A DNA stretch of 64,000 nucleotides from Pseudomonas sp. MAG733B (lineage in GTDB: Bacteria > Pseudomonadota > Gammaproteobacteria > Pseudomonadales > Pseudomonadaceae): contig NZ_CP145732.1 of assembly GCF_036884845.1 (NCBI RefSeq), positions 2,542,001 to 2,606,000 of the forward strand, given 5' to 3'. The position numbers and the translations under genes were made by a program. The first letter of the stretch is position 1; each line of letters opens with the position of its first letter. Below are positions 6,786 through 63,679 of this stretch, in pieces. The notes under the pieces were generated by a model. It ran no database searches. It had not been told where the DNA came from and saw nothing but the letters and a program-made list of their open reading frames with translations.

Positions 6786-6814
6786 TTGACCTCATCTTGT
6801 TGCCACTATATATA
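6786..6814 (+). promoter_or_regulatory. Sigma70 promoter of topA
   Basis: TTGACC (6786-6791), a 17-bp spacer, then TATATA (6809-6814), 61 bp upstream of the topA start. Near-consensus hexamers and ideal spacing make this a strong housekeeping promoter. Confidence 0.75.
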
Positions 6815-6874
6815 GCGGTGCCGCGTCAGGCGCCAACCGCCTTTCACTTCTCGAATTCAGGAATTTTCTGATCC

Positions 6875-9502
6875 ATGGGCAAATCGCTGGTCATTGTGGA
6901 ATCCCCGGCTAAGGCCAAGACCATCAACAAGTATTTGGGCAACGAATACGTGGTGAAGTCGAGTATCGGCCATATCCGAGACCTGCCCACCAGCGGTTCG
7001 GCTAGCGCCAGCAAAGAGCCAGCCGCCAAGCGCGGCAAGGCTGCTGCGGGCGAAGCGCCGGCCTTGTCGCCTAAAGAAAAGGCGCGCAAGCAGCTGGTCG
7101 CGCGCATGGGGGTCGATCCGGATCATGGCTGGAAAGCCAAGTACGAGATCCTCCCGGGCAAGGAAAAGGTCATCGAAGAGCTGCGCAGGCTCGCCAAAGA
7201 TGCTGACACCATCTATCTCGCAACCGACTTGGACCGCGAGGGGGAAGCCATTGCCTGGCACCTGCGCGAAGCCATCGGTGGTGACGACACCCGCTACAAG
7301 CGCGTGGTGTTCAACGAAATCACCAAGAAGGCGATTCAGGAAGCCTTCTCCAAACCAGGCGAGCTGGATATCGATCGCGTCAACGCCCAGCAGGCGCGTC
7401 GTTTCCTCGACCGCGTCGTGGGTTACATGGTTTCGCCGTTGCTGTGGGCCAAGATCGCCCGTGGCTTGTCCGCCGGCCGTGTGCAATCGGTTGCCGTGAA
7501 GCTGGTGGTTGAGCGTGAGCGTGAAATTCGCGCGTTCATCCCGGAAGAGTACTGGGAAGTGCACGCTGATCTGGGCACCGCCAAAGGCGCGACCGTGCGT
7601 TTCGACGTGGCTCGCGAGAAGGGCGAAGCGTTCAAACCGCTCAACGAAGCCCAGGCGATGGCCGCGCTAGAGAAGCTCAAGGCTTCCAGTTACAGCATCG
7701 TCAAGCGTGAAGACAAACCGACCAGCAGCAAGCCGTCGGCACCGTTCATCACTTCCACTCTGCAACAGGCCGCAAGTAACCGCCTGGGCTTCGGTGTGAA
7801 GAAAACCATGATGATGGCCCAGCGTCTGTACGAAGCCGGCTACATCACTTACATGCGTACCGACTCGACCAACCTCTCGGTTGATGCCGTGGCGATGGCT
7901 CGTACTTATATTGAAGGCGAGTTCGGCAAGAAGTACCTGCCGGAAAACCCGAACGTCTACAGCAGCAAGGAAGGCGCACAAGAGGCTCACGAAGCGATTC
8001 GTCCTTCCGACGCCAATACCGAGCCAAGCAAGCTGTCGGGCATGGAGCGTGACGCAGAGCGCCTCTACGAGCTGATCTGGCGCCAGTTCCTCGCTTGCCA
8101 GATGCTACCGGCGCAATACCTGTCGACCACGGTCACTGTCGGTGCCGGCGACTTCGAGCTGCGTGCCAAGGGCCGTATTCTCAAATTCGACGGTTACACC
8201 CGTGTGATGCCGCAAATCGCCAAGCCAGGCGATGACGATGTACTGCCGGACATGGCCCAGGGCGACGCGATGAAGCTGATCAAGCTTGATCCGACCCAGC
8301 ACTTCACCAAGCCGCCGGCGCGTTACTCGGAAGCCAGCCTGGTAAAAGAAATGGAAAAACGCGGCATCGGTCGTCCTTCGACCTACGCGGCAATCATTTC
8401 GACCATCCAGGACCGTGGCTACGTGGCGCTGCACAACCGCCGTTTTTACTCGGAAAAGATGGGCGACATCGTCACCGAGCGTCTGTCCGAAAGCTTCTCC
8501 AACCTGATGGACTACGGCTTCACCGCCGGCATGGAAGAACATCTCGATGACGTGGCCCAGGGCGAACGCGACTGGAAAAACGTGCTCGACGAATTCTACG
8601 GCGACTTCAAGAAGAAGCTCGAAGTAGCCGAAAGTCCGGAAAGTGGCATGCGTGCCAACCAGCCGGTAATGACCGACATTCCGTGCACGACTTGCGGCCG
8701 TCCGATGCAGATTCGTACCGCATCGACTGGCGTGTTCCTCGGTTGCTCAGGCTACAGCCTGCCACCGAAAGAGCGCTGCAAGGCGACCGTCAACCTCGTA
8801 CCAGGCGATGAAATCGCTGCGGATGACGAAGGCGAGTCGGAATCGCTGGTATTGCGTGGCAAGCATCGCTGCCCGATCTGCAGCACGGCGATGGATGCCT
8901 ACCTGCTCGATGAGAAGCGCAAGTTGCACATCTGCGGTAACAACCCGGATTGCGATGGCTACGAAATCGAAGAGGGCACCTATCGCATCAAAGGCTACGA
9001 AGGTCCGAGCCTGGAGTGCGACAAGTGCGGCAGCGAGATGCAACTCAAGACCGGCCGTTTCGGCAAGTTCTTCGGTTGCACCAATCCCACCTGCAAGAAC
9101 ACCCGCAAACTGCTGAAGAGCGGTGATGCGGCGCCGCCGAAGATGGACCCGGTGAAGATGCCTGAGCTGAAATGCGAAAAGGTCAACGACACCTACATCC
9201 TGCGCGACGGTGCGTCCGGCCTGTTCCTGGCGGCCAGCCAGTTCCCGAAAAACCGCGAGACCCGTGCGCCGCTGGTCATGGAAATCATCCCGCACAAGGA
9301 TGAGATCGATCCGAAGTACCACTTCCTCTGTGAAGCACCGAAGAAAGATCCGGACGGCCTCCCGGCTGTGATCCGTTACAGCCGCAAGACCAAAGAGCAA
9401 TACGTGCAGACCGAAGTCGACGGCAAGCCGACTGGCTGGAAAGCGTATTACGACGGCGGCAAGTGGACCGTTGAAGACAAGCGTCCAGCTGCGAAGGCTT
9501 AA
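6875..9502 (+). CDS. topA: DNA topoisomerase I
   Basis: 875-residue type IA topoisomerase. The TOPRIM domain begins [17 protein letters not shown] and includes the acidic metal triad near [13 protein letters not shown]. The active-site tyrosine is Tyr326 in [11 protein letters not shown]. The C-terminus has three four-cysteine zinc ribbons, roughly residues 605-770 ([24 protein letters not shown]), then a further C-terminal domain. It relaxes negative supercoils through a 5'-phosphotyrosine intermediate. CAGGAA precedes the start at a somewhat long spacing. It has its own promoter and terminator, so it is probably monocistronic. Confidence 0.97.
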
Positions 9503-59159: not shown

Positions 59160-60554
59160 TCAATAGATGTCTTTAGACAGCAAGGTGAAGGGCGTCTTTA
59201 CCAGGATCTTCAGATCCAGCCACAGCGACCAGTTGTTGATGTACTTGAGGTCGATCTCGACGCGTTTCTGCATCTTGTCGATGGTGTCGGTTTCGCCGCG
59301 GCAACCGTTGATTTGAGCCAGCCCGGTGATGCCCGGTTTGATTCGGTGGCGGGCCATATAGGCGAGAATTTTGCCGGAGTAGTAGTCATTGTGCGCAATG
59401 GCGTGCGGACGTGGCCCGACGAGGGCCATATGGCCTTGCAACACATTGAACAGTTGCGGCAACTCATCGATTGAGGTTCGACGGATAAAGCGCCCTACGG
59501 CTGTTATCCGTGAGTCATTTCGACTGGCCTGTTTGACTTCCGCATCATCGTGAACGCGCATCGAACGGAACTTCCAGACCTGGATAACCTTGCCGTTCCA
59601 GCCATGCCGATCCTGTTTGAAAAATACCGGCCCGTGAGAGGTGAGCTTGACGGCCAGACCGATGGCCAACAGTAGCGGGCTTAGAACGACAATCGCCATC
59701 AACGCCACGCATTTATCGAGCAGGCTTTTACTCAGTGCGGCGGTGGGTTGGCTGGTCAGCGGGCTTTCATTCAGATGTATTGCCGGAAGACCGTCCACAT
59801 CGCTGACCGAGTGATTGAGCAGGGTCAGGCTGTTCAAGTCCGGGACCCACACCACATCTACGTGGGCATCCAGCAAATCGCCATACATGGCTTCGATTTG
59901 TACCGCTTCACTCAAGGGCAGTGTGATGTACAGGCGTCGAATGTCATGGGTTTTGATCAGCTCCAACAATTCCTCTTGCGGGCCTACGATGGGGGGGGCA
60001 CCAACTTCCAATCGGGAAGTGGCATCGGAGCTCACCAGGCCGACCAGTGGGAAATGCTCAAGGGTACGAAGCTTGTTAGCCAGTCCCAGGGCAAGTTCAC
60101 CCGTCCCGACGATCAACGTTCTGCGCTCTCGTTGAAGTGATCGTTGGTAGTACTTCGAAAAGCCCTGTAGGGGAACATACAACAGCGCTTGGCCAACATA
60201 ACTGCCGATCGCCCAAACCAGAATGATCTGGCGGGAAAACAGTTCATTGGCCTTACAGAGGAAAGCAACAATAGCCAGTGCCGCCAACGTCATTGACCAA
60301 CCCATCAACAGCCTGATCAGCCCCTCCAGGTAATTGTCTTTCTTTGCATAGACACCACACCATGTATAAGCGGGAACCGATGCAAGTACGGTCAGTGTTG
60401 CGCATACTCGATAATAAAATTCTACCGCTCCTGTTTGGTAATAAACCAATGAAAGTAACAGGGCAACAGCAAAGCCCTGGCCAACTACCCACTGTCCCCA
60501 GAAGGTCAATCCTTTGAGAGTGGTATTTCGATTGATACGAAGACTGTTAACCAT
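59160..60554 (-). CDS. wcaJ: Undecaprenyl-phosphate glucose phosphotransferase, WcaJ type
   Basis: 464 residues, the same length as E. coli WcaJ. Four to five membrane helices (about 15-140), a Rossmann-like cytoplasmic domain ([17 protein letters not shown]), a further helix near 285, and the catalytic sugar transferase domain with [25 protein letters not shown] and VGPRPH are visible. It starts the lipid-linked repeat unit by loading glucose-1-phosphate. GGGGA precedes the ATG at 60554. An 8-base C run on the coding strand (59991-59998, near residue 187) could cause slippage. Confidence 0.93.
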
Positions 60555-60901
60555 GCGATATCCCCAAAATACGTCCATTTGCGTGTCGACAGACAAGAGC
60601 CAAGTTGATCTGGCAGCGTTATTATTCTTATAAGAGGGCCATGCGTTGACGAGCTGAAACGCCAAGGGGCGGCGCTGTCGTCAGTCAATAGATTAAGTTA
60701 TCGATGCGAGGGCTGTCTGACGACTTCTAACGACGCGTTAGTGTCGAAGTCCAATATGGCGGGGAGGCAGGGTGTGTTAGAAAAGGTCGATAATTGTGAT
60801 GGGTGGGGCGTGTCTTAAGGGAGGGAATGGTAGGTAACAAAGTTGGAGGGTGTGCTTTTTTTATTTTTATAGCGCACTGTCGTTGTGACCATGTTAATTG
60901 T
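60555..60901. other. wcaJ upstream region
   Basis: 347 bp between wcaJ and the regulator gene upstream on the same strand. It is AT-rich (TGCTTTTTTTATTTTTATAGCG near 60855 on the plus strand). It probably carries the wcaJ promoter, but no reliable hexamer pair was found and no gene is supported. Confidence 0.5.
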
Positions 60902-61588
60902 TCAGGTCAGGCTTCTCCCGCGTACAATTTTTTGTATCAGGCAATACCCACGGTTTCTGACTGCACGGAAAAGCCGTTCGCCATTTGTGGCGCTTTTGAA
61001 TTTCTCCTGTAGTCGGCTCAGACACATTTCGAGACCGCGATAGCTTTCCGGCTCTCTTCCGATACTGCGGATAAGATCGTCTTTGCTGACCACGCGATCA
61101 TCATGGTGCAGCATCTTCTTGAGTAATGTGGCCTCCAGGCCAGTCAAGACAATCTCTATGTCATCCTTGATCAACGCGCCACTGCCATTACTAAATCGCC
61201 AGGTTTCAGCCAGAGGAATGCGCGGCTCGACCAGGTTGGAGGGGAATTCCCTGGTGGCGTCCTTGGGTTCAATTGCGATAGAGGTGATGTTGTTAATTAG
61301 AGGGCTGGGTTGAGCCGCTTGCCACTCGGACTTGAATGTCGAAAGAATGCGCTGTGTATCATGCTTGATAACAGGCGAGATCATTCTGTCCACGTGCGGG
61401 AAAATAAACTCCATAAGCTTAGGGGCGGAGGATGGTGGGGCCACGCCTTCTACAAACATCTTGGCTTGTGACGTACCGAACGAGTTATATCGCTTGCTGG
61501 AGAGTAGCGTCTCCAGTTCCAACTGTAGCGCGGGGCTATGAGTGACTACTACAAAGTATTTTCTCGGGAGGTTTGTACCGCTTTCCAT
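60902..61588 (-). CDS. Winged-helix transcriptional regulator with atypical N-terminal domain
   Basis: 228 residues. The C-terminal OmpR/PhoB-type winged helix (about 135-228) includes LTGLEATLLKKMLHHDDRVV, DDLIRSIG, and the wing ending FRAVRNRGYCLIQK. The N-terminal half (KYFVVVTHSPALQLELETLL) resembles a receiver only loosely and lacks the acidic pocket and phospho-Asp. It therefore probably responds to a partner or ligand rather than a kinase. AGGAGAG precedes the ATG at 61588. It lies 34 bp after the EAL-like gene and upstream of wcaJ, its most obvious target. Confidence 0.78.
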   Translation of the reverse strand: MESGTNLPRKYFVVVTHSPALQLELETLLSSKRYNSFGTSQAKMFVEGVAPPSSAPKLMEFIFPHVDRMISPVIKHDTQRILSTFKSEWQAAQPSPLINNITSIAIEPKDATREFPSNLVEPRIPLAETWRFSNGSGALIKDDIEIVLTGLEATLLKKMLHHDDRVVSKDDLIRSIGREPESYRGLEMCLSRLQEKFKSATNGERLFRAVRNRGYCLIQKIVRGRSLT

Positions 61589-61622
61589 GTCTCTCTCCTG
61601 AATTGCACGCCTGGGTATTGGT

Positions 61623-62378
61623 TTAAAGGTTGTCGGCAGGGGAGTAATGGCTCCCTTGGAAATAATCGAAGGGCAAGGCTCGCGCCAATACATGGCTTGC
61701 AGCATGCTCTACTCTGTCCGCTATAAAGCTGACTTTGGTATTGTGAGCCTGCAGGGTCATACGCTCGTAGAGTCGATTGAATAGTTCTGGGTTGCCCGTG
61801 AGTTTGAGGCTCAAGTCTAAGGTGGAAACAGAGATCTTTATATAGTCGAATAGATTCAGGGTTGTAAAGATCTCGATACTTTCGTCGTGAATGTTGAAAC
61901 CGTCGAATGCGATTTCGATACCGTGATCTTTCAATAGATACACGTTATGGATGATTTTCTTTTTGTCGGTAAAGTTGACCGCTGGAAAAGGTAGCTCATT
62001 GAGTGCGACCACCAGTGTCTGACCAAAGCCGCGCAGGGCCTCGTTGCACTGGATCAGCTCTTCGGTGAGGGCAGCATTGATGAGCGCTGACTGTTCGATA
62101 CAAACAAATCGGCGACTCAAATACTTGTTTTCGCTAGAGGCGTTGCGCTCTTTTAATGAGAAGGCAATCAGCCGAGTCTGCATCAGTGCTTCACTGTAGA
62201 TGCTGCTCATCTGATGCGTTGCTGGTGCGTAAGATGCAAGAGTGGACAGGAACTGGCTGTCGTCGGTTTTTACTCTGATCTCGCTGCCAAATGGGCGGTC
62301 ATCGCGTGTAAGAATCAGTTGTCGAGACAAATACTGATTCGCACGGTCGAAGCGAGGCACGCATTCGGTTGCGTTCAT
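61623..62378 (-). CDS. Degenerate EAL-domain protein
   Basis: 251 residues that follow the EAL fold without its catalytic set. The E-A-L motif region is replaced (GSEIRVKTDDS), DDFGTG becomes DGFNIHD, K-I-D becomes KISVS, and E-G-V-E becomes DRVEHA; the late motif DYFQGSHYSP keeps the Gln. Such proteins usually do not cleave c-di-GMP but can act as sensors or protein-binding partners. It is placed between two winged-helix regulators on one strand with gaps of 27 and 34 bp, so it is very likely co-transcribed with them. ATG 62378 is favoured by CGGAG upstream. Confidence 0.7.
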   Translation of the reverse strand: MNATECVPRFDRANQYLSRQLILTRDDRPFGSEIRVKTDDSQFLSTLASYAPATHQMSSIYSEALMQTRLIAFSLKERNASSENKYLSRRFVCIEQSALINAALTEELIQCNEALRGFGQTLVVALNELPFPAVNFTDKKKIIHNVYLLKDHGIEIAFDGFNIHDESIEIFTTLNLFDYIKISVSTLDLSLKLTGNPELFNRLYERMTLQAHNTKVSFIADRVEHAASHVLARALPFDYFQGSHYSPADNL

Positions 62379-62405
62379 AATGCAATAACTCCGTTGCATA
62401 AATAA

Positions 62406-63146
62406 TCAGGTGGAAGAAATCAAACCCCTGATTAAGCGATATCCATACCCGCGAATACTTTGAATGGCGTTGGTGCCATACATGCCTTTTATTTTGCCGC
62501 GAAGGCGGCTGATCGATTTTTCCAAGGCTCTCGGGTCATAAAAATTAATATTGAGGCCCATGGCTCTGGCGATTTCGTCATGGCTCAATATATGGTTTTT
62601 CGTTTCAGAAAAAGCTTCAAGAATTTTCATTTCTGCAAACGATACATCAAGTTTTTTATCATCTCCGATGAGGCACATACGCGTGGGGTCGAGAAGCAGG
62701 TTGTCCTTTGACTGCCATTCCTGACTACCAAAAAAATCGGAAAATACCTGGACGTTATCGTCAGGAGCGCTGCTGAATTTTACGCAGTAATCCGCACCGG
62801 CAAGATAGTACTTCATCTTGTTGTAAGTGCCTGATCCGGTGATCGCTGCAAAAATTATTGACGCCATATTGTTGGCGCGCAGGCCTTCGATCAATGCAAT
62901 GCTTTCAATGAACGCCTGAGGGTTGTCAACGACGATAAAGACCGCTCGATACAACTCCGGGTGGATATTCCTATTGAATGAGTTGCTGTAGCACGTTGCA
63001 TCGACGGGTACTTCATTGCCTGCGTGACTGGCGACTAACTCACGGAAATCCTCAGCTAACATATGGGTCCGCCCAATGGTGAGAATCCCTGTCTGCTCCC
63101 TTGCATGGTTGTGGTTTGAGGTGGTTTTGTTACCTGTAAGCATCAT
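62406..63146 (-). CDS. Winged-helix transcriptional regulator with pseudo-receiver
   Basis: 246 residues. The N-terminal about 130 residues have a receiver-like order of strands (ILTIGRTHMLAEDFREL; AVFIVVDNPQAFIES; MASIIFAAI; GADYCVKFSSA), but the phosphorylation strand has VVDNP without the usual acidic pair. The C-terminal winged helix (about 155-246) ends IQSIRGYGYRLIRG. It is the first gene of a three-gene minus-strand unit with the EAL-like protein and the second regulator. Two adjacent ATGs (63146, 63143) are equally possible. Confidence 0.77.
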   Translation of the reverse strand: MMLTGNKTTSNHNHAREQTGILTIGRTHMLAEDFRELVASHAGNEVPVDATCYSNSFNRNIHPELYRAVFIVVDNPQAFIESIALIEGLRANNMASIIFAAITGSGTYNKMKYYLAGADYCVKFSSAPDDNVQVFSDFFGSQEWQSKDNLLLDPTRMCLIGDDKKLDVSFAEMKILEAFSETKNHILSHDEIARAMGLNINFYDPRALEKSISRLRGKIKGMYGTNAIQSIRGYGYRLIRGLISST

Positions 63147-63679
63147 GCTTTGACTCGGCTGGGTGCTGACGTTTGGATGTTAAAGCACCGATTCTCATTT
63201 GTGACTGACAATTGGTAACATTTCACCGGAATTTGAAGTGGTCGACACGGTTTTTCTAACATTGTTGATGAATCTGACGTGATCGTTTGCTCTCCAGAGG
63301 AATGGAGCGGTCAATCATCTGAGACACTCCGGACGATATGATGGCATAGCATTATGCCATCTTTTTTCTCGATATCCCGGATTCACGAACCCATAAGCTG
63401 TACGTGTGGCTAGCGCTTCTATCGGTTTTTGTTTTCTGTCGAAAGTTCACCAGGCCTTGAAAATCTCATGTCGATGGAGGGGGCTCATGCAGTTTCGGAG
63501 AGCGATATACCCTTTAATAACTTGTATATAACTTCGTGATTACAGCTGCGGAGGCTGGACATTTAATAACAAGCGGTTCTAATGCGCGGCTTGATGCGTT
63601 TTACTATTTCTTTCGCCTAATGTTCGAATGGTCAACAGACCTTGCACGCGAGAGTCGCGAGGGTCTACACGGGGGGTTA
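63147..63679. other. Island-uppP intergenic region with orphan terminator
   Basis: 533 bp. AT-rich sequence, a strong plus-strand terminator at 63340-63367 with no plus-strand gene before it, then the uppP leader. A possible weak promoter TTGAAG-N16-TCTAAC lies at 63233-63260. The first part must also hold the promoter of the regulator gene on the minus strand. Confidence 0.55.
63340..63367 (+). terminator. Orphan intrinsic terminator, possible sRNA end
   Basis: GATGGCATA, loop GCAT, TATGCCATC, then TTTTTT. It is a perfect 9-bp stem with a six-T tract. The T-tract is on the plus strand only, and no plus-strand gene precedes it within the island end. Confidence 0.8.

What the first reader, a model, noticed from the sequence alone, without database searches (positions are those of the whole stretch)
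60902..63146. Three-gene regulatory cassette: winged-helix regulator, degenerate EAL protein, winged-helix regulator
Seen: three minus-strand genes with 27- and 34-bp gaps. The outer two end in OmpR-type winged helices but have receiver-like N-termini lacking the phosphorylation pocket. The middle one keeps the EAL fold but has lost its catalytic motifs. The unit lies next to wcaJ. Known: degenerate EAL proteins can work as ligand or protein sensors. Inferred: a kinase-independent switch in which the EAL-like protein conveys a c-di-GMP or other signal to two paralogous regulators of the polysaccharide island.
Basis: partly seen in the sequence, partly recalled or inferred. Interest (0 to 1): 0.72.

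Follow-up and report, generated by a model that had tools for sequence, protein, structure and literature searches.

The report
Capsule switch operon with fading sensors
Three neighbouring Pseudomonas genes look like a self-reinforcing switch for a sugar capsule, in which the DNA-binding parts and their likely docking site are kept across many species while the sensing parts, including a dead c-di-GMP enzyme, wear away and in one lineage are lost.

Summary
The trio is real and its gaps (27 and 34 bp) are right. REGC and REGA carry OmpR-type winged helices; EALB keeps an EAL fold but lacks several catalytic residues. Of 298 Pseudomonas genomes 78 have REGC: 35 with a linked full EAL gene, 1 with a frameshifted one, 34 with a remnant, 8 with none. 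An operator-like element lies in the trio promoter and the wcaJ promoter; its 18-bp form occurs only there in the 6.65-Mb genome, and the core GTTA-N6-GTCA is at both promoters in 83 of 91 loci (all of clades 1-5, none of the 8 distant ones). In P. fluorescens SBW25 this position is held by pflu3655-3657, published regulators of a bistable capsule. The regulatory reading is thus supported; the c-di-GMP reading is not: one loss explains 34 EAL-less genomes whose regulators and elements stay intact. Where present, EAL is under purifying selection, so I read it as an optional protein partner, like YdiV. In the EAL-less clade the broken 3' end of the EAL gene is still strongly conserved as DNA, hinting at a cis role. 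New variant of a known kind.

The parts
62406..63146 (-). REGC: atypical OmpR-family regulator, 246 aa; degenerate receiver (acid pair replaced by R26-T27; D74, T103, K123 kept) plus winged helix
61623..62378 (-). EALB: stand-alone EAL-domain protein without the full catalytic set, 251 aa
60902..61588 (-). REGA: winged-helix regulator, 228 aa; N-terminus a receiver remnant in this clade
63202..63219 (-). Operator-like element GTTACCAATTGTCAGTCA in the trio promoter, about 73 bp before the REGC start in clades 1-3
60714..60731 (-). Operator-like element GTTAGAAGTCGTCAGACA in the wcaJ promoter
63252..63261 (-). Second shared motif TGTTAGAAAA in the trio promoter
60775..60784 (+). Second shared motif TGTTAGAAAA, opposite orientation, in the wcaJ promoter
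59160..60665 (-). wcaJ-like sugar transferase (longest ORF; true start probably inside), presumed target

Best explanation
The unit is the local switch of a colanic-acid-like capsule. REGC and REGA are kinase-independent OmpR-type activators that bind a repeat (GTTA-N6-GTCA) in their own promoter and in the wcaJ promoter, so that a little regulator makes more regulator and turns on the capsule: a positive feedback loop. The EAL protein is not an enzyme; it is a protein partner that tunes one or both regulators, as YdiV tunes FlhDC in Salmonella, and it can be dispensed with. Shown here: gene anatomy, conservation, the shared element, loss of catalytic and receiver residues, purifying selection, EAL lost in one clade. 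Shown by others in SBW25 for the genes in the same position: they are needed for full capsulation, and self-activation is reported. Inferred: DNA binding by these proteins at the element, contact between EAL and the regulators, and that SBW25 pflu3655-3657 are the orthologues.
For: Trio plus wcaJ conserved; the 74 best wcaJ hits in 298 genomes are all in REGC-bearing genomes. 18-bp element only twice in the genome, at the two promoters. In loci outside the alignment that gave the pattern, it is found with at most 1 mismatch before wcaJ in 25 of 25 loci of the divergent clades 4 and 5, and before REGC in 6 of 6 of clade 4. Core at both promoters in 83 of 83 loci of clades 1-5. SBW25: insertions in pflu3655, 3656, 3657 remove or reduce capsule; nonpolar ones in 3656 and 3657 reduce it; pflu3655 mRNA is 572-fold higher in capsulated 6B4 than in 6A4 and 19-fold higher than in non-capsulated 6B4; self-activation against RsmA/E is reported. 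dN/dS 0.155, 0.128, 0.128 for REGC, EALB, REGA in clade 1; 0.111 and 0.103 for REGC and REGA in the EAL-less clade.
Against: The element was read from alignments after the fact. In clade 5 the trio site does not match the 18-bp form at 1 mismatch (0 of 19); the core was shortened after these sites were seen. A 15-bp form beginning TGTTA occurs 3 times in the genome, only one of them here, against 6 for the backward control, so the core alone is not specific. The 8 distant REGC loci lack the core. No binding data. SBW25 genes could not be fetched, so orthology rests on position. If SBW25 has only an EAL remnant, the pflu3656 phenotype says nothing about an EAL protein. REGA is not REGC's nearest relative in the genome. 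The REGC model is weak (pLDDT 62.4).
Confidence: 0.6

Rival explanations
1. The EAL protein is a c-di-GMP receptor: it binds the nucleotide without cutting it and passes the state to REGC and REGA, so the unit ties the capsule to c-di-GMP.
For: P. [quoted passage not shown] E33, D159, K181, Q241 and the fold are kept.
Against: The LLR arginine position holds H, K, Q and others; Glu at 125 is missing in 40 of 40; both Asp of DDFG are lost in the L070 clade; a 34-genome clade lost the protein while the switch genes stayed.
Confidence: 0.15
2. EALB is a bystander on its way out: a once useful sensor whose gene persists mainly to couple translation of REGA to REGC.
For: One clade-wide loss and a separate frameshifted copy (L075) beside it; faster change in the nearest full copies (dN/dS 0.320 against 0.048 and 0.092, one pair only); 3-prime DNA conserved after the loss.
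Against: In clade 1 EALB dN/dS is 0.128, as low as for the regulators; 11 invariant columns over 40 diverse sequences.
Confidence: 0.2
3. REGC is still phosphorylated, by a distant kinase or a small phosphodonor, and the unit is an ordinary two-component output.
For: D74 31 of 31, T103 29 of 31, K123 27 of 31; NCBIfam matches to ordinary response regulators extend into the receiver, residues 71-238, though far below cut-off.
Against: Acid pair replaced by R26-T27; D74 is E in 6 of 51 of the wider set, T103 is T in 43 and K123 K in 40 of 51; Pfam finds no receiver in any of 31 relatives.
Confidence: 0.1

Closest known systems
pflu3655-pflu3657 capsule (CAP) regulators of P. fluorescens SBW25
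   Same: Genes directly upstream of wcaJ; needed for full capsulation; a fusion to the promoter region is on in capsulated cells; positive feedback and Gac/Rsm control reported (PMC6519391 and PMC4357382, passages read)
   Different: 'EAL' does not occur in the main text of PMC6519391, and PMC4357382 says most of the region has no significant database matches.
YdiV of Salmonella
   Same: Non-catalytic EAL protein that acts on a transcription factor within a bistable circuit and is under CsrA (PMC4173784, passages; that it is a degenerate EAL protein is recalled)
   Different: YdiV inhibits FlhDC, not OmpR-type proteins; no contact shown for EALB; no sequence comparison made
ToxR/PA0707 of P. 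aeruginosa
   Same: Stand-alone degenerate EAL regulator (PMC9388670, passages)
   Different: Binds c-di-GMP; not compared by sequence or context here
Atypical OmpR-family regulators with a degenerate receiver (such as NblR)
   Same: REGC matches the NblR model over residues 64-238 (E 3.6e-4); that NblR is atypical is recalled
   Different: Score 20 against a cut-off of 300; here two such genes flank an EAL gene

Membership tests
OmpR/PhoB response regulators | C-terminal winged helix (Trans_reg_C) | tested here: met
OmpR/PhoB response regulators | Receiver with acid pair, Asp, Thr and Lys | tested here: not met
   REGC lacks the acid pair but keeps D74, T103, K123; no receiver call by Pfam for REGC relatives or for REGA
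EAL phosphodiesterase | EAL domain fold | tested here: met
EAL phosphodiesterase | Full set of metal and catalytic residues | tested here: not met
   C93, A125, G160, D221 at the motif positions; which residues are catalytic is recalled
SBW25 pflu3655-3657 capsule regulators | Genes directly upstream of wcaJ | tested here: met
   position in SBW25
SBW25 pflu3655-3657 capsule regulators | Sequence orthology | not testable with these tools
SBW25 pflu3655-3657 capsule regulators | Needed for capsule, self-activating | not testable with these tools
   Only the operator-like element at both promoters was tested here
YdiV-like stand-alone EAL regulators | Single EAL domain without the catalytic set | tested here: met
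YdiV-like stand-alone EAL regulators | Binds a transcription factor | not testable with these tools

The most novel reading that the evidence does not exclude
In the 34-genome clade the broken EAL gene has been turned from a protein partner into a cis element: the shifted 3' end of the old gene, just upstream of REGA, is now held by selection at the nucleotide level, so the switch kept a control step while changing its substance from protein to leader DNA or RNA.
Probability: 0.25. Interest if true: 0.72.

Novelty: new variant of a known kind. Interest (0 to 1): 0.52.

Why it matters
It gives a published bistable capsule switch a candidate operator, a protein make-up and an evolutionary series: intact EAL, decaying EAL, natural deletion. 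That makes it directly testable what a dead EAL protein adds to a positive-feedback switch, and shows input domains eroding while DNA-binding parts and the element stay fixed. Natural EAL-less species are ready-made controls.

Tried and rejected
RNA structure in the EAL-less leader: RNAalifold on 12 of the 34 leaders gave 46 pairs, only 2 with a change on both sides, covariation term -0.7. Single folds around the REGA start were no more stable than shuffles (median z 0.24 over 64 sequences in which a Shine-Dalgarno motif was found; the rest, mostly the L070 clade, dropped). So a structured leader and Shine-Dalgarno sequestration are not supported.

A cis element already present in intact EAL genes: fourfold sites of the last codons are slightly more conserved in clade 1 (0.782; bootstrap fraction 0.013) but not in clade 5 (fraction 0.56), and the REGC control behaves similarly (0.07). 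Not convincing.

A C-terminal EAL microprotein in the EAL-less clade: the remnant frame is broken by shifts in several genomes (for example L125, L127, L128, L150) while the DNA stays alike, so nucleotide-level constraint fits better. A 30-31 codon ORF from the old start is present in 26 of 34.

Trio outside the genus: 13 of 148 family genomes match the EAL profile, 9 of them in other genera; in the six of these nine that were given loci (L196-L201, about 1.5 kb each side) no convincing REGC or REGA was found; three were not examined. The list of fold matches for REGC was filled by winged helices, so its N-terminus was barely tested. The sigma-70 scan found 2 sites against 4.2 expected, none on the trio's strand.

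Full report
What is there. Three minus-strand genes lie at 62406-63146 (REGC), 61623-62378 (EALB) and 60902-61588 (REGA), with gaps of 27 and 34 bp, followed by a wcaJ-like sugar transferase at 59160-60665. The 15 named relatives of EALB found in one scan are all Pseudomonas. Gene names other than those given by Pfam (gfcA-D, wza, galE, galU, uppP, wzc) are my reading of the sequences, not tool results.

Distribution. In 298 genus genomes EALB matches (E 1e-5) in 43 and REGC (E 1e-15) in 78. After fetching and reading the places, the 78 fall into 35 with a linked full EAL gene, 1 with a frameshifted one (L075), 34 with a remnant and 8 without. The remnant is seen by tblastn in 26 of the 34 and by DNA alignment in the rest. 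Of the 43 EAL matches, 35 are the linked full genes, 1 the frameshifted copy, 6 remnants, and 1 (L067; P. benzenivorans by its contig length) stands alone without the trio. In the 35 the order REGC-EALB-REGA-wcaJ is constant; three REGC copies look disturbed (L058 split by about 1.4 kb, G233 with an internal stop, L077 in two frames). REGA matches in 101 of 398 genomes. The 74 best wcaJ hits (E up to 5e-194) are all in REGC genomes; the next 6, 63-65% identical, are not; 217 of 298 genomes have some wcaJ relative at E 1e-60.

Clades used below: 1, window-like with full EAL (21 loci); 2, L061, L062, L075 (3); 3, remnant (34); 4, L063-type (6); 5, L070-type (19); 6, distant without EAL (8).

Shared element. 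Aligning promoters of the window and 17 relatives showed near-invariant blocks before REGC and before wcaJ. GTTANNANNNGTCAGNCA occurs twice in the whole 6.65-Mb genome, both on the gene strand, at these two promoters; the pattern came from these sites, so this shows rarity, not independent discovery. The fair test is, made before clades 4 and 5 had been looked at: in 91 loci with REGC (92 given; L067 has none), with at most 1 mismatch, it lies before REGC in 64, between REGA and wcaJ in 84, and 13 times elsewhere in 1.04 Mb. Of the divergent clades, all 25 loci of clades 4 and 5 have it before wcaJ and 6 of 6 of clade 4 before REGC, but 0 of 19 of clade 5 before REGC. There the same place holds GTTAAAATTTGTCAC, which shares only the core. 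The core GTTANNANNNGTCA, shortened after that look, is on the gene strand at both promoters in 83 of 83 loci of clades 1-5; on the reverse strand in 0 and 4; read backwards in 0 and 0; in clade 6 in 0 of 8 and 0 of 4. Two genomes are in the set twice (L015 = L056, L018 = L057), and the loci are related, so these are not independent events. Against specificity of the core alone: TGTTANNANNNGTCA occurs 3 times in the genome, only one of them here, with 6 for the backward control. A second motif, TGTTAGAAAA, occurs exactly twice in the window, at the same two promoters (0 of 100 shuffles had two). In six loci where a wzc-type gene lies next, a match (one exact, five with one mismatch; L018 and L057 are one genome) lies 0.85 kb or so before it (L011, L018, L020, L021, L023, L057).

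Loss of EAL. On a wcaJ tree of 77 rows the 34 remnant genomes form one side of a branch (support 99/95; 98% of 200 bootstrap trees), next to L061, L062 and L075; so one loss suffices for them, with L075 a separate break and clade 6 unresolved. Median dN/dS over sampled pairs for REGC, EALB, REGA: clade 1 0.155, 0.128, 0.128; clade 5 0.101, 0.191, 0.137; one pair of clade 2 0.048, 0.320, 0.092. In the remnant clade REGC is open over the matched stretch in 34 of 34 and REGA in 33 of 34, dN/dS 0.111 and 0.103. So EAL is useful where present, dispensable in one lineage, and the regulators stay under selection without it.

The remnant. Between REGC and REGA 269-296 nt remain: in 26 of 34 a 30-31 codon ORF at the old start, then the old EAL C-terminus, broken by shifts in several genomes. 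Pairwise this stretch is more alike than fourfold sites of the flanking genes (0.670 against 0.547 in the 0.5-0.6 bin, gaps counted as differences). By column, the EAL C-terminal remnant (97 columns) has a major-base frequency of 0.916 against 0.68 at 93 fourfold columns, reached by none of 10000 draws. This points to constraint on nucleic acid. RNA folding gave no support for a structure, and an older constraint inside intact EAL genes is not convincing.

Literature. In SBW25 the CAP locus wcaJ-wzb is pflu3658-3678, and pflu3654-3657 lies directly upstream; insertions there abolish or reduce capsule (PMC4357382, passages). PMC6519391 (passages) lists pflu3655, 3656 and 3657 as regulators, shows that nonpolar insertions in 3656 and 3657 reduce capsulation, gives pflu3655 mRNA as 572-fold higher in capsulated 6B4 than in 6A4 and 19-fold higher than in non-capsulated 6B4, and describes self-activation against RsmA/E, citing Remigi 2019, which is not held and which I know only through this. 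'EAL' does not occur in its main text. Searches by gene name in the held library found three papers that mention these genes; the third only places pflu3655 at a duplication end (passages). I recall, without a call, that the outer two SBW25 genes were described as having DNA-binding domains.

Mechanism. Most likely REGC and REGA activate their own operon and wcaJ through the shared element, giving feedback and bistability as reported for SBW25; EALB tunes them by contact. YdiV is a precedent for an EAL-type protein in a bistable circuit (PMC4173784, passages); ToxR/PA0707 warns that a dead EAL can still bind c-di-GMP (PMC9388670, passages). That second reading cannot be excluded but is the weaker one here.

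Noticed in passing
L058 (G005), REGC pieces at 6788-7084 and 8497-8949: REGC is split near residue 150 by about 1.4 kb of extra sequence (residues 147-151 matched on both sides), while EALB, REGA and wcaJ look intact: a natural REGC disruption.
   Followed up: no
L063-L089, REGA N-terminus: The REGA input domain is receiver-like in one clade, a remnant in the window's clade and unrelated low-complexity sequence in another, with the winged helix constant.
   Followed up: partly
L196 (G516), 391-1182 and 1495-2277: Two neighbouring stand-alone EAL-like genes in another genus of the family, without the trio.
   Followed up: no
G000:C1:4155998-4157377: A second wcaJ-like gene in the same genome, 53% identical.
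   Followed up: no
window 63340-63361: Terminator-like hairpin followed by a T-run between the trio promoter and the divergent uppP-like gene; GATGGCA is alike in many of the aligned relatives.
   Followed up: no
L157, L158, L159: Distant REGC-REGA pairs without EAL, wcaJ or the element, in other neighbourhoods; in L157 the gene before them looks by eye like a mannose-phosphate guanylyltransferase.
   Followed up: partly
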